Assembly: GCA_021734045.1 (NCBI GenBank)
Contig: JAIPJR010000017.1
Coordinates: 1-38,045, forward strand
DNA from: Fidelibacterota bacterium
GTDB lineage: Bacteria > Fidelibacterota > UBA8477
Reading direction: 5' to 3'
Length of the DNA: 38,045 bases
Shown here one piece after another: positions 32,317 through 37,178 of the stretch. The position numbers were made by a program, and so were the translations under genes. Positions within the stretch are counted from its first letter, which is position 1. Every line of letters starts with the position of its first letter. The notes under the pieces are model-generated. The model saw only the letters and a program-made list of their open reading frames with translations, was not told where the DNA came from and searched no databases.

Positions 32317-33516
32317 TTAAACCCGCTCCACAATCAATGCAGACGCCTCACCGCCACCGATGCACAGTGTGGCGAGACCGCGTTTTAACTGGCGTGTCTG
32401 CATTGCATACAGTAGTGTGGTGAGAATTCGCGCTCCCGATGCGCCAATGGGATGTCCCAGAGAAACAGCACCACCATTTACATTCACTTTATCATGGGGA
32501 ATTTTCAGCTCATCCATCGTCACCATGGTCACCACCGAGAAGGCTTCATTAATTTCGTATAGATCAATGTCGTCAACCGTAAAACCGGCCTTTTTCAAAA
32601 CCTTGTTTACCGCTTTTGCCGGTGCGGTGGTAAACCACTCCGGCGCCTGAGCCGCGGACGACTGGGCGATGACTTTTGCTATCGGTGTCAGATCGTACTT
32701 CTTTAACATTTCACCGCTAACCAACACCAGAGCCGCAGCACCATCATTGATTTTAGAGGCGTTGGCCGCCGTGATGGTACCGTCCTTCTGGAATGCCGGT
32801 CGCAAGGCCGGAATTTTATCGAAATTAACCTTTTTCGGTTCATCATCCTGCGTGACCATCACCGGATTCCCTTTGCGATGGGGAATTTCCACCGGTGTGA
32901 TTTCCGCATCAAAATCGCCATTCTCCTGCGCGCGGATAGCCCGCTTGTAGCTTTCCACCGCGAAGGCGTCTTGCGCCTCCCGTGAATAATGATACTCGGT
33001 GGCACACCGCTCACCGGCCAGTCCCATGTGGGTATTATCGTAGGCGTTGAGGAGACCGTCTTTCAAAATCCCGTCCTCCAGCGTGCCATTTCCCAATCGG
33101 TACCCCGACCGACCATTGGGGACATAGTAGGGGACATTGCTCATACTCTCCATGCCGCCGGCCACGATGATATCCGCATCCCCCACCTGAATGGCTTGTG
33201 CTGCCAGCATTACCGATTTTAAGCCCGAGCCGCAGACTTTATTAATGGTCATGCACTCCACATCCACGGGTAAGCCGGCATAAATGGCTGCCTGGCGCGC
33301 GGGGGCTTGTCCTTCACCAGCCGTAATCACATTTCCCATGATGACTTCATCCACCTGATCCGGTTTGAGACCAGCCTGTTTCAGTGCACTATGAATAACA
33401 GTGGCACCCAGTTTTGTGGTGGGCACACTGCTGATACTCCCCTGAAATGCCCCAATTGGTGTGCGCATGGCAGCTACGATATAAACTTCATTCAAGTGTT
33501 CCGGAATTTTTCCCAT
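32317..33516 (-). CDS. Acetyl-CoA C-acetyltransferase (thiolase II family)
   Basis: A 399-residue thiolase. KVCGSGLK contains the acyl-carrying Cys95, NEAFSV and [11 protein letters not shown] (His355) the oxyanion and base residues, and LCIGGGE (Cys385) the second catalytic cysteine. It cleaves or condenses acetoacetyl-CoA and related 3-ketoacyl-CoAs. It is the first gene of the minus-strand run thiolase, hydroxyacyl-CoA dehydrogenase, acyl-CoA dehydrogenase, leucine dehydrogenase, nusB. No enoyl-CoA hydratase is in the run. An IS110-family element is inserted about 77 bases upstream of its ATG, in the probable promoter region. Confidence 0.95.
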
Positions 33517-33582
33517 CGTCCTTCAATCCTTTCTTTGCTCGATTTCCCCCACTGGATCATTCATGGCTTTTTCAACCCTTGC

Positions 33583-33592
33583 CTCCGGTTGT
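33583..33592 (+). repeat. Left half of REP-like palindrome interrupted by the IS
   Basis: CTCCGGTTG plus the last T before the CT core. It is the reverse complement of CAACCGGAG at 34887-34895. The terminal TTGT plus core CT equals the candidate left target guide in the RNA (33673-33678). Confidence 0.6.
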
Positions 33593-33594
33593 CT

Positions 33595-33600
33595 TATAAA
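33595..33600 (+). promoter_or_regulatory. Possible -10 hexamer at the left end
   Basis: TATAAA forms the first six bases of the element after the core. In IS110 elements a promoter can form when the two ends join in the excised circle, with the -10 in the left end. No convincing -35 was found in the right end, so this is tentative. Confidence 0.3.
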
Positions 33601-33604
33601 GGGT

Positions 33605-33797
33605 GCTGTGAAAAATCGGAAGAATTTCTTTACTTGGTTAGAAAGCGATAAAAGTGAGGAGGAGAGACAAACTTGTCTATGGTCAATGAACCACTCAGCG
33701 AGCGATTGTCCCTCCTCACTCAAACCAACTTTGTCAACTCCCATAACAGGTTGTGTCATCAGAACACCTTTAACCAATAAGAAAGAGCAGACAAAGT
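33605..33797 (+). ncRNA. Candidate IS110 bridge RNA (two-loop guide RNA)
   Basis: Two consecutive large hairpins lie directly upstream of the recombinase. Hairpin 1 has a perfect ten-base stem AGTGAGGAGG/CCTCCTCACT (33653-33662/33711-33720), long internal-loop strands and an inner TGGT/ACCA stem. Hairpin 2 has an eight-base stem ACTTTGTC/GACAAAGT (33728-33735/33790-33797), internal-loop strands of about 13 bases and an inner GGTTGTGT/ACAC-AACC stem with a bulge. Loop segments match the target (TTGTCT; CTCAGCGAG, eight of nine to the reverse complement of core plus right flank) and the donor ends (TAACAGGTT versus right end TAACAGGCT; ATAAG versus core plus left end CTTAT). The 5' limit is approximate. 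The family is known; this example is read by eye. Confidence 0.72.
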
Positions 33798-33819
33798 CTA
33801 GCCGGGAAAGGATACGATC

Positions 33820-34839
33820 ATGAAGTCCCGAAGAACAACCCCTAATTTCCTTTTCACTGCCTGTAGTATCGGTGTTGATGTCTGTAAATCGAGTCTGGAT
33901 CTCACTGGTTTTAATAAAGATGGGGGCTGGTACCGACAGATCCCGAATCGCCGTGAACCGATTCTGGCTTTTTTAATGCAGCTTGACAGTTTTTCAGGTC
34001 CAATTATCTGTGAAAGTACCCGCTGGTACCACTTGCTATTTGCTCACTTGTGTTATGAGCGTGGATTTGATATTCGGGTGATAAACCCGTTGTTGTCCAG
34101 CAAGCACAGTAAAAGTGCCATTCGCAAGGTTAAGACAGACCCGGCCGACAGCCGAACTTTGGCCATCATGGGTATCACCGAGCCGGACCTGCCGTCCCGT
34201 GCAGACCTAAGTATGGCTCGGATTCGTTTGAAGAAAAAGCTGGGTCTGCTCCATTCGCTGGAAAAATGGATACAGTCTCAAAGACGGAGTTTGAGAGATT
34301 ATCAAGCTTTTGCCGAGACGATGGGTATTCCCTTAAGCGCCGGCGAGGAGATGTTAAAACAAAGTGTTGAGCAACTGGAACAGACCCGGAAAAGTCTTGA
34401 AAAAGAGATCACGGCTCTCATCGACCAAGCCTCAACGGAAACCGGGCAGTCCAATCAAGCCGTCTTAAATAGTATCCCTGGTTTTTCAACGCCAGTTAGC
34501 GGCCAAGTAGCGACCTTGCTCGATCCACAGGCTCCTTCAGCTAAATCATGGATTGGATTTGTGGGGTTGGATATTTCGGTCCGGATGAGTGGTCACTGGA
34601 AAGGAAAGTGTCGGTTGACGAAGCGGGGCAATCCCTATCTAAGAAAACGGTTATACCAAGCTGCTTGGGGGGCTTGTATAAATTATCCAGAGATCAGGCA
34701 GTACTACGACAAGCTAAAACAAGGTGGCCGTAAACACCGGGAAGCCGTAATTATCGTGGCTCGACGCCTGCTGCGGATCGGGTATACCTTGATTCAAAAA
34801 CAACAAATGTTCGATATGGAGAAGGCTTTTGCTGCATGA
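33820..34839 (+). CDS. IS110-family DEDD recombinase (transposase)
   Basis: A 339-residue RNA-guided recombinase of the IS110 family. The N-terminal RuvC-like domain has Asp20 (GVDVCKSSLDL), Glu65 (ICESTRWYH), Asp107 and Asp110 (KTDPADSRTL), the DEDD set with the family spacing. A coiled-coil of about 140-205 (EKEITALIDQA) links to the Tnp C-terminal domain with SIPGFSTPVSGQVATLL, WIGFVGLDISVRMSGHWKG and TKRGNPYLRKRLYQAA; Ser257 in the SG motif is the predicted catalytic serine. The frame is intact and full length. An AAAGG ribosome-binding site lies about eight bases before the ATG. The long non-coding region is 5', which places it in the IS110 rather than the IS1111 group. Confidence 0.95.
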   Translation: MKSRRTTPNFLFTACSIGVDVCKSSLDLTGFNKDGGWYRQIPNRREPILAFLMQLDSFSGPIICESTRWYHLLFAHLCYERGFDIRVINPLLSSKHSKSAIRKVKTDPADSRTLAIMGITEPDLPSRADLSMARIRLKKKLGLLHSLEKWIQSQRRSLRDYQAFAETMGIPLSAGEEMLKQSVEQLEQTRKSLEKEITALIDQASTETGQSNQAVLNSIPGFSTPVSGQVATLLDPQAPSAKSWIGFVGLDISVRMSGHWKGKCRLTKRGNPYLRKRLYQAAWGACINYPEIRQYYDKLKQGGRKHREAVIIVARRLLRIGYTLIQKQQMFDMEKAFAA

Positions 34840-34867
34840 GTTCAGGAACTTTTACCTTTAACAGGCT

Positions 34868-34895
34868 CCCTGAGCCTGTCGAAGGGCAACCGGAG
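34868..34895 (+). repeat. Right part of REP-like palindrome (target of the IS)
   Basis: Starts CCCTGAGCCTGTCGAAGGG and ends CAACCGGAG. With the left half it folds as a nine-base stem, a TCT bulge that contains the CT core, a CCCT/AGGG stem and an eleven-base loop. The GAGCCTGTCGAAGGG-type sequence resembles widespread REP-like intergenic palindromes. Nothing else is seen in 34896-34996. Confidence 0.65.
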
Positions 34896-34996
34896 CTTAG
34901 AATTCCCTGCGCGTACTTCGCCCCTGCTATGCTCTCTTCGCCCGGGCAGGCAGCTTCAGCAAGATCCGCAGACTACATTTCCCCAAAAGCGCCATC

Positions 34997-36229
34997 TTAC
35001 TTCACCAATCGTCGTAGTGAAAACAAATCCATATTGGTGTTCTCACCATCCAGCATAACCTGAGCAGCCAGACGACCCATGGAGAAACCAAATCCCATGC
35101 CATGCCCCGTATAACCCCCGGCCGCAAAGATATTGCTCTTGCCTGGCAGGCTGCCTAACATGGGGATACCGTCGCGTGAAAATCCCATTATCCCGGCCCA
35201 TTCATAGTCGACAGTGAACTTTTTCAGGTCAGAAAAATTGTCTTTTAAATACGCGCTTAATTTCGTGGTAACCCGCTCATCAGGCAGTTCATTAAAATGT
35301 TGCGCATCACCACCCGGCACAGACTCGCGCATTCCGCCCATCAGTACGCGGCCATCCGGTAACTGGCGGAAATACTCGTAACCAAAATTGGCGTAGATGA
35401 CCGGCTCCCACAGTTTTTGTGGAATGGGTGAGGTAACCATGGCATGCCCGCGTACCGGCAGAATCTTGTCGGTAAAAAAATCATCCATAAGCTGGCTGTA
35501 AGCGTTCGTCCCCAAAAGTAATAGATAGCCGGAGACGCGACCTTTTGGTGTTTCCACCGTCACGCTATCATAATCGTCGTGGATGATTTGGGTCACCGGT
35601 GTGTTTTCGAAAATCAGGGCGTCACGATCTCTGGCAGCTCGCGCCATACCGGAAACCAGCCGCGCCGGATGGACGCCGGCGTCCGCAGGCGTGAAAAGTC
35701 CGCCTTTGAATAGCGAGGAGCGGGTCAGGTCTGCAATCTCGGTTTCATTCCGGTATTCGACGCTAAAGCCATCCGCTTGCATGAGCGCCACACTCTCTTT
35801 CAGTTCGGCATCCTCTTCAGTTGAAATTGCGGCATGGAGTGAACCGGTTTCGTCCAGATCACAACCAACCTGATGCTCCCGGATGAAGTCCTTCATTAGA
35901 CGAATATTGTCAACTGTAAACGCAAATAGCCGGCGTGTTTTCTCGCGCCCAATGAGGGCAACAGCCCGGGCATAATGTTCCACTGTCCCGGTAAGTAAAA
36001 ACCCACCATTACGACCGGAAGCACCACTGGCCACCAGTTCTTCTTCCAGCACAACCACCCGGGCACCGGCCTGACGCATCCAGTACGCCGCTGCAGTACC
36101 GGTAATGCCTCCACCGATAATGATTATATCACAGGTGAGATTCCGGTCCAGCGACGGGAATTGCTGCTCCGCATCCCGCAGCCAATACACCCGCTGGTGT
36201 TCAGATTTTCCCGTTGATTTCTCTGTCAT
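34997..36229 (-). CDS. FAD-dependent oxidoreductase of the DAO family (D-amino-acid / gamma-glutamylputrescine oxidase-like)
   Basis: A 410-residue flavoprotein. CDIIIIGGGITGTAAAYWMRQ is the FAD-binding Rossmann loop, VVLEEELVASGASGRNGGF the conserved GASGRNGG segment of PuuB-like oxidases. AGVHPARLVSGMA and ILPVRGHAMVTSP are mid-domain features, and GYTGHGMGFGFSMGRL is the C-terminal FAD motif. It oxidises a primary or secondary amine or amino acid; which one is unknown. I start it at the ATG at 36229; the frame extends 14 codons farther. It overlaps the end of phoH by 29 bases in another frame, so translation is likely coupled. The IS110 element lies just downstream. Confidence 0.88.
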   Translation of the reverse strand: MTEKSTGKSEHQRVYWLRDAEQQFPSLDRNLTCDIIIIGGGITGTAAAYWMRQAGARVVVLEEELVASGASGRNGGFLLTGTVEHYARAVALIGREKTRRLFAFTVDNIRLMKDFIREHQVGCDLDETGSLHAAISTEEDAELKESVALMQADGFSVEYRNETEIADLTRSSLFKGGLFTPADAGVHPARLVSGMARAARDRDALIFENTPVTQIIHDDYDSVTVETPKGRVSGYLLLLGTNAYSQLMDDFFTDKILPVRGHAMVTSPIPQKLWEPVIYANFGYEYFRQLPDGRVLMGGMRESVPGGDAQHFNELPDERVTTKLSAYLKDNFSDLKKFTVDYEWAGIMGFSRDGIPMLGSLPGKSNIFAAGGYTGHGMGFGFSMGRLAAQVMLDGENTNMDLFSLRRLVK

Positions 36230-37178
36230 AAGCCTGAATGATATGGCGGACCAATTTGTGGCGGACGACATCCGCGTCTGTGAAGGTTACCGTGGCGATT
36301 CCTGGTACGGATTTCAAAATACGGGTACTCTGCACCAGACCCGATTCTTCCCGTGCTGGCAAATCGATTTGCGATAAATCTCCGGTTACAATGACTTTGG
36401 AATTTACACCCATGCGGGTGAGGAACATCTTCATCTGAATGGCGGTTGTATTTTGCGCTTCATCCAGAATAATAAAAGCATTATCCAATGTACGACCACG
36501 CATATATGCCAAGGGGACAATCTCAATGGTTTTCTGGTCCAGGAGCTGGCGTACGCGATCGGCGGGCAGCATGTCGTACAGCGCATCGTACAGCGGCGTC
36601 AGGTAGGGATCGATTTTTTCTTTTAAATCACCGGGTAAAAAGCCCAGCCGCTCTCCCGATTCAACCGCCGGACGAGTGAGAATGATTTTCTTCACCTCCC
36701 GGTTTTTGAATGCCGAAACAGCAAATGCTACGGCCAGGTAGGTTTTACCCGTTCCCGCCGGTCCCAGAGCAAAGGTGAGATCCGAATTTTTAACCGCTTC
36801 GAAATAGGCTTCCTGACCTTCGGTGCGGGGTTTGATGACATCGGACCGGGTAAACAGGATTACAGAACCCAGACCCGGTTCTCCAACAGGCGTGGTTCCC
36901 GCCCGCATCAACTTGATGATGGTGACCACATCCTCTTTATCCAGGTATTTTTTCCTGCTGAGAACTGTCAGCATTTCCCCCACAATTGCCTCGGCTTCAA
37001 CAATATCCTGCTGTTCACCGGAAAGGGTAATGTCATTGCCACGGACAAAAATTTCCACCGCCAGTTCCTGCTGCAAAATCTTCAGATTGGTGTCATTCAC
37101 ACCTAGAAAATCCACCGGATTGAGATCACGCAGGCTGATTTTTTTCTGTTGGGATCCTGTCACTGGTTTCGACTCCAT
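36201..37178 (-). CDS. phoH: PhoH-family ATPase
   Basis: A 325-residue P-loop ATPase of the PhoH/YbeZ type, linked to RNA metabolism and often near the ybeY RNase gene. Walker A is GPAGTGKT (139-146), Walker B AFIILDEAQN (Asp239, Glu240), with VIVTGDLSQIDLP as sensor and RGRTLDNA before Walker B. The N-terminal 100 residues form the KH-like region. AAGGAG is 13 bases from the ATG, long for a ribosome-binding site; an in-frame ATT nine bases upstream would be at better spacing but is not assumed. It overlaps the FAD oxidoreductase start by 29 bases. Neither ybeY nor another RNA-processing gene is present downstream here. Confidence 0.93.
   Translation of the reverse strand: MESKPVTGSQQKKISLRDLNPVDFLGVNDTNLKILQQELAVEIFVRGNDITLSGEQQDIVEAEAIVGEMLTVLSRKKYLDKEDVVTIIKLMRAGTTPVGEPGLGSVILFTRSDVIKPRTEGQEAYFEAVKNSDLTFALGPAGTGKTYLAVAFAVSAFKNREVKKIILTRPAVESGERLGFLPGDLKEKIDPYLTPLYDALYDMLPADRVRQLLDQKTIEIVPLAYMRGRTLDNAFIILDEAQNTTAIQMKMFLTRMGVNSKVIVTGDLSQIDLPAREESGLVQSTRILKSVPGIATVTFTDADVVRHKLVRHIIQAYDREINGKI

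What the first reader, a model, noticed from the sequence alone, without database searches (positions are those of the whole stretch)
33583..34895. IS110 element splits a REP-like palindrome exactly at the RNA-predicted core
Removing 33595-34867 joins CTCCGGTTG-TCT (33583-33594) to CCCTGAGC...AGGG-CAACCGGAG (34868-34895). The result is a hairpin with a perfect nine-base outer stem, a three-base bulge containing the CT core, and an inner CCCT/AGGG stem. The outer-stem match was not used to choose the boundary, so it is independent evidence. It also suggests this IS targets REP-type palindromes, as some IS110/IS1111 elements are known to do.
Basis: partly seen in the sequence, partly recalled or inferred. 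Interest (0 to 1): 0.8.

Follow-up and report, generated by a model that had tools for sequence, protein, structure and literature searches.

The report
RNA-guided insertion element splits palindromic repeat
A jumping gene whose own RNA picks its landing site has landed inside a small hairpin-shaped repeat, and two related bacteria still carry that repeat unbroken at the same place; this is a well-supported new example of a known behaviour, with an unusual version of the repeat as the target.

Summary
An IS110-group element (33595-34867, 1273 bp, one copy in the genome) is flanked by two halves of a 40-base imperfect palindrome. Two genomes of the same genus carry the empty site between the same two genes. 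The closer one (G001) is identical to the window across the join: CTCCGGTTGTCT^CCCTGAG before its loop, TCGAAGGGCAACCGGAG after it. The insertion neither lost nor duplicated bases beyond the shared CT core. All five IS621 catalytic positions are kept. The leader folds into two hairpins; its donor guides match the joined element ends (18 of 19 positions, 0 of 2000 shuffles), its target guides match the split site (14 of 18, 32 of 2000).

The target is a repeat, but the outer stem is not what is read. The invariant part is a GTC-tagged hairpin, TGTCT-CCCTGAG...TCGAAGGG, resembling published CGTC-tagged REPs; the element cuts between tag and hairpin. In this genus (Ca. Neomarinimicrobiota) most copies sit inside a stem of locus-specific sequence (33 of 52 pair at 8 or more of 10 positions; 0 of 30 in sister-order genomes).

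IS110-type elements in REPs are known, so this is a new member of a known kind; the locus-specific stems are the less familiar part.

The parts
33595..34867 (+). IS110-group insertion sequence, 1273 bp (one CT core copy counted inside)
   Evidence: Absent from the orthologous gap in G001 and G002 with the two flanks joined exactly there; single copy
33583..33594 (+). left part of the split palindrome: 9-nt outer arm CTCCGGTTG plus TCT (tag end and core)
   Evidence: identical in G001 empty site
34868..34895 (+). right part of the split palindrome: CCCTGAGCCTGTCGAAGGG hairpin plus arm CAACCGGAG
   Evidence: CCCTGAG and TCGAAGGGCAACCGGAG kept in G001, inner loop differs
33593..33594 (+). CT core, left copy
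   Evidence: CT is the only direct repeat at the two ends (read)
34866..34867 (+). CT core, right copy
33820..34839 (+). IS110 transposase/recombinase, 339 aa; D20, E65, D107, D110, S257 align with IS621 D11, E60, D102, D105, S241
   Evidence: PF01548 and PF02371; NF033542 at 128.8 bits, under its 140 cut-off; phmmer to IS621 8wt6 E=1.8e-13; positions; IS621 residues from PMC11208158
33653..33720 (+). predicted target-binding hairpin of the bridge RNA
   Evidence: fold of 33652-33795: -40.3 kcal/mol, z -3.49, 0 of 200 shuffles as good
33670..33678 (+). left target guide candidate AACTTGTCT (6 of 9 match CGGTTGTCT, the last six in a row)
33694..33702 (+). right target guide candidate CTCAGCGAG (8 of 9 complementary to CTCCCTGAG)
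33731..33794 (+). predicted donor-binding hairpin of the bridge RNA
33744..33752 (+). left donor guide candidate TAACAGGTT (8 of 9 match TAACAGGCT)
33767..33781 (+). right donor guide candidate CCTTT-AACCA-ATAAG (two halves, 10 of 10 complementary to CTTATAAAGG)
   Evidence: a discontinuous right donor guide is described for IS110 (PMC11208160, passages)

Best explanation
A bridge-RNA-guided IS110-group element inserted, as a circle and by CT-core recombination, into a GTC-tagged palindromic repeat in the gap between a thiolase and an FAD oxidoreductase gene. The element's leader RNA folds into two hairpins. The first carries guides for the repeat: TTGTCT (end of the outer arm and tag) on the left and CT..CTGAG (5' arm of the hairpin) on the right. 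The second carries guides for the element's own joined ends. Shown: the insertion, its exact boundary, the pre-existing palindrome, the repeat family, the conserved catalytic residues. Inferred: RNA expression, circle formation, and that base pairing chose this site.
For: Empty orthologous sites with the joined palindrome in 2 of 2 genus genomes. Intact paralogue in the same genome. Donor guides 18 of 19, 0 of 2000 shuffles; target guides 14 of 18, 32 of 2000 shuffles. Leader fold z -3.49. IS110 domains and active-site residues. Target core TTGTCTCCCTGAG is repeated: 7 exact copies listed in G000 and 8 in G002, where about 0.08-0.09 per genome would be expected at equal base frequencies (expectation is my arithmetic). 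Counts at up to 2 mismatches are 65, 73 and 118 in G000, G001, G002 against 31, 29 and 25 for the reversed control.
Against: Single copy, so site choice cannot be shown to repeat. The left target guide matches only 6 of 9 positions and the right guide has one mismatch; 75 of 1785 other CT sites in the window score as well on this leader. The contiguous form of the donor test was not significant (376 of 2000); only the form with a gap in the right donor guide was, and that form was written after I had read the leader by eye. No promoter-like site was found by the scan of 33500-35000, which does not cover the circle junction.
Confidence: 0.9

Rival explanations
1. The palindrome halves are ends of the mobile element itself (a terminal inverted repeat) and not target DNA.
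For: They are inverted and flank the element; IS1111-type elements have subterminal inverted repeats (PMC11187229, passages).
Against: The same palindrome is present without the element at the orthologous place in two genomes and at another place in this genome. The donor guides match ends at 33595 and 34867, inside the palindrome halves. The long noncoding region is upstream of the gene, as in the IS110 group.
Confidence: 0.02
2. Chance insertion at a CT in intergenic DNA that happened to hold a hairpin; no REP targeting.
For: One copy only; target guide match moderate.
Against: The split falls exactly at the tag-hairpin boundary that is invariant across the repeat family, and the first leader hairpin holds matches to both sides of it in the expected order.
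Confidence: 0.06
3. The element recognises the hairpin shape, not the sequence.
For: The outer stems differ in sequence between loci while staying paired.
Against: IS621-type recombinases read both strands of the target by RNA pairing (PMC11208158, passages), and guide matches to the invariant letters are present.
Confidence: 0.03

Closest known systems
IS621 and its bridge RNA (IS110 group; REP-targeting in E. coli)
   Same: DEDD plus serine recombinase, leader RNA with target and donor loops in the same order, CT core, insertion in a REP (PMC11208160 and PMC11208158, passages; IS621 in REPs from a reference title)
   Different: Distant protein (phmmer 53.8 bits over residues 17-333); right target guide candidate longer, with one mismatch; the repeat is of the GTC-tagged kind
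ISPpu9, ISPpu10 and ISPa11 in Pseudomonas REPs
   Same: All copies inside REPs at a fixed position (between bases 9 and 10, or 6 and 7); ISPpu9/10 leave a 2-bp repeat (PMC1525189, abstract and Results read). ISPpu10 and ISPa11 are treated as IS110/IS1111 elements in PMC11208160; for ISPpu9 this is recalled
   Different: Multi-copy in their hosts; here a single copy, so the preference rests on guides and on one site
CGTC-tagged REPs (Di Nocera 2013)
   Same: Unpaired CGTC or TGTC tag next to a hairpin, found over several phyla, no dedicated transposase found beside them (PMC3733652, abstract, passages and sections 6, 7, 16)
   Different: The letters CCCTGAG do not occur in that paper's main text (its figures and files were not seen); in this genus an extra locus-specific stem encloses tag and hairpin. 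That paper reports some REPs inside palindromes, but of fixed consensus

Membership tests
IS110 group (bridge-RNA recombinases) | DEDD RuvC-like domain plus Transposase_20 domain with catalytic serine | tested here: met
   NF033542 hit lies under its curated cut-off
IS110 group (bridge-RNA recombinases) | Long noncoding region upstream of the gene (IS110) rather than downstream (IS1111) | tested here: met
   225 bp upstream of the start, 28 bp downstream of the stop
IS110 group (bridge-RNA recombinases) | Leader RNA with target guides then donor guides around a shared core | tested here: met
   target side moderate, donor side strong in gapped form; no covariation possible without relatives
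IS110 group (bridge-RNA recombinases) | Circular intermediate and RNA-guided recombination | not testable with these tools
   needs a bench assay
REP-targeting IS | Insertion splits a REP at a fixed position, intact REP reconstituted on joining | tested here: met
   (one insertion)
REP-targeting IS | Several copies all in REPs | tested here: inconclusive
   only one copy exists
CGTC-tagged REP | CGTC or TGTC tag unpaired beside a stem-loop | tested here: met
   YGTC[TA] before CCCTGAG in 17 of 30 sister-order rows (my count), without outer stem; in this genus the YG is taken into the outer stem
CGTC-tagged REP | 8-9 bp stem beginning with A-T pairs, loop 4-5, CCA tail, as in families 1-4 | tested here: not met
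   inner stem is CCCT/AGGG, no A-T start and no CCA tail; so like that kind, not of families 1-4
RAYT-associated REP | Y1 transposase gene flanked by the repeat | tested here: not met
   PF01797 hits: 2 in G000, 0 in G001, 3 in G002; no CCCTGAG unit in the loci around them

The most novel reading that the evidence does not exclude
In this genus a GTC-tagged REP core sits at the tip of hairpin stems whose sequence differs between loci, and inner loops are swapped independently of the stems. Either the core enters loops of extruded hairpins on single-stranded DNA, or replication template-switching around the core builds a perfect stem from whatever flank is there. The IS110 element's guides cover the only invariant stretch of this structure.
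Probability: 0.35. Interest if true: 0.65.

Novelty: new member of a known kind. Interest (0 to 1): 0.42.

Why it matters
It shows a bridge-RNA element in a little-studied phylum with readable target and donor guides and a proven empty site, and it suggests that such an element can use the invariant tag-hairpin junction of a repeat whose outer stem is free to vary. The genus-specific outer stems make a testable case for how palindromic repeats gain or keep paired arms.

Tried and rejected
Transposase relatives: peptide-pattern scans of genome contigs and viral contigs found none; 2 of 100 relatives at 1e-30, one of them the window's own genome; 1 of 245 phylum genomes at 1e-35, the own one; plasmids only under 60% identity, listed rows 27-29%. 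So guide-target covariation over relatives could not be tested.

Outer stems as intrinsic terminators: rejected; 1 of 33 stem loci has a T-rich tail and 0 an A-rich lead, against 3.3% each at random places.

Unit inserted into a hairpin that was already there: not supported so far. Of the ten G001 loci sent, seven were aligned with orthologous stretches. Four G000 stretches lacking the unit (for L096, L029, L035, L099) also lacked the stem, but these gaps have diverged. Stem kept with a different inner loop: L029 and L100 against G002, and the IS locus itself.

RAYT as mobiliser: no repeat beside any Y1 transposase found.

Literature searches for the repeat letters and for nested palindromes gave 0 papers; Marinimicrobia with insertion sequence and palindromic gave 1, not relevant by its listing. 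This is no proof that the repeat is unpublished.

Full report
The region. The window's own genome is G000 (2.54 Mb, 119 contigs). The element lies between a thiolase (32317-33516, minus) and an FAD oxidoreductase (34997-36271, minus).

The element. The 339-residue protein matches both IS110 Pfam domains and aligns over 17-333 with IS621 (8wt6, E=1.8e-13). The residues needed by IS621 (D11, E60, D102, D105, S241; PMC11208158, passages) correspond to D20, E65, D107, D110 and S257 (I read the correspondence from the printed alignment). NCBIfam's IS110 model is hit at 128.8 bits, below its cut-off of 140, so the protein is a divergent member. It is single-copy, and no other Transposase_20 match was found in the three genus genomes.

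The boundary. CT is the only repeat shared by the two ends (33593-33594, 34866-34867). Removing 33595-34867 restores the sequence seen at the orthologous gap. G001 is identical to the joined window through CTCCGGTTGTCTCCCTGAG and TCGAAGGGCAACCGGAG; only the inner loop differs (window CCTG, G001 CTTGTCCCGAGCCTGACGAGGGGCCCCG, ahead of TCGAAGGG). G002 keeps CCGGTTG and CAACCGG but reads TTC where the others read TCT, with a third inner loop. So the palindrome is older than the insertion.

The RNA. The 225-base leader folds better than shuffles (z -2.79; the two-hairpin part z -3.49, 0 of 200). The first hairpin holds AACTTGTCT (6 of 9 against the left target) and CTCAGCGAG (8 of 9 against the right target): 14 of 18, reached by 32 of 2000 shuffled leaders; 75 of 1785 other CT sites in the window also reach 14 on the real leader. 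The second hairpin holds TAACAGGTT (8 of 9) and CCTTT-AACCA-ATAAG (10 of 10 in two halves) against the joined element ends: 18 of 19, reached by 0 of 2000 shuffles scored in the same way. With a contiguous right donor guide the donor test was not significant (376 of 2000). The discontinuous form is the published one for IS110 (PMC11208160, passages), but I had seen the match by eye before writing that test.

The target family. TTGTCTCCCTGAG occurs exactly at 7 places in G000 and 8 in G002 (the list was cut before G001, for which one search shows 5 loci with an exact copy). CCCTGAG N3-33 TCGAAGGG occurs 13, 17 and 24 times in G000, G001 and G002, against 0, 1 and 0 for the reversed pattern. From these 54 places 53 distinct rows were read and 52 kept for the pairing test (flanks of 14 or more, duplicate arms removed; the IS-split copy is among them, paired with the IS end, and counts against).

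The outer stems. In the genus, the ten positions outside the TCT bulge pair at 7.48 of 10 on average; re-dealing right arms among loci gives 4.14, maximum 4.88, 0 of 2000 as high; 33 of 52 loci pair at 8 or more; there are 34 distinct 7-base left arms among 52 loci. In the sister-order genomes (30 rows from the loci) the same unit has no such stem: 2.70 against 2.32, 120 of 2000, 0 of 30 at 8 or more; 17 of the 30 rows carry a TGTC or CGTC tag (my count). In other taxa (75 rows from the 80 loci listed of 105 stretches; 11 genus rows set aside) the mean is 4.07 against 3.68, 8 of 2000, and 4 of 75 reach 8; I suspect these are Chitinophagaceae copies that share one stem, but did not check. An unbroken outer run of 4 or more pairs was seen in 9 of 11 genus rows and 0 of 69 others (my count). 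So the stem is not needed for the repeat and is a feature of this genus among the genomes examined. It is not a terminator by its tails, and 4 of 52 units lie in open frames of 150 codons or more.

Loops. CTTTGCCTGTCCGGCTCTCGACGGA fills the loop in 9 of 24 G002 copies, 1 of 13 G000 copies and 0 of 17 G001 copies, across different stems. At orthologous loci the stem is kept while the loop changes: the IS locus, L029 and L100; in L100 the stem also shows a paired change, CTG/CAG to CCG/CGG. Inner modules thus seem to turn over independently of the stems.

Mechanism. The best reading is RNA-guided insertion at the tag-hairpin junction. The guides cover letters that are invariant in the family plus the last arm letters TTG, so the element could use any copy with a TTG arm end, whatever the rest of its stem. 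Whether this happened by RNA pairing in the cell is inferred, not shown.

Known and new. Insertion of IS110/IS1111-type elements into REPs is published (PMC1525189, abstract and Results; PMC11208160 and PMC11187229, passages). REPs with CGTC or TGTC tags are published (PMC3733652), including some lying within palindromes of fixed consensus. What I did not meet in these sources, or in the searches, is a REP whose enclosing stem has its own sequence at each locus; that is a limited search, not a claim of absence.

Noticed in passing
L026, L029, L036, L039, L048, L096, L097 and others: A GTC-tagged hairpin repeat sits inside outer stems of locus-specific sequence in this genus; such stems were not seen in the sister-order rows examined and hardly in other phyla.
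   Followed up: partly
G002, 9 of 24 copies: One 25-base inner loop has spread through copies with different outer stems, as if inner modules were exchanged between loci.
   Followed up: partly
G009:C25:24776-24818, G013:C22:3803-3845 and similar: Repeat within repeat: a CACTGAG...CGAAGTG hairpin, preceded by GTCA or similar, lies inside the loop of a CCCTGAGG...CTCTCGAAGGG hairpin in sister-order genomes.
   Followed up: no
G002:C245:18744-19201: Three copies of the same hairpin unit at exactly 219-base spacing, a tandem array.
   Followed up: no
window 33820-34839 and 33669-33702: The transposase has no near relative in 245 genomes of its phylum at E<=1e-35 beyond its own genome, and its guides spell CTTGTCTCGCTGAG, slightly different from the host repeat, which would fit arrival from another host.
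   Followed up: no
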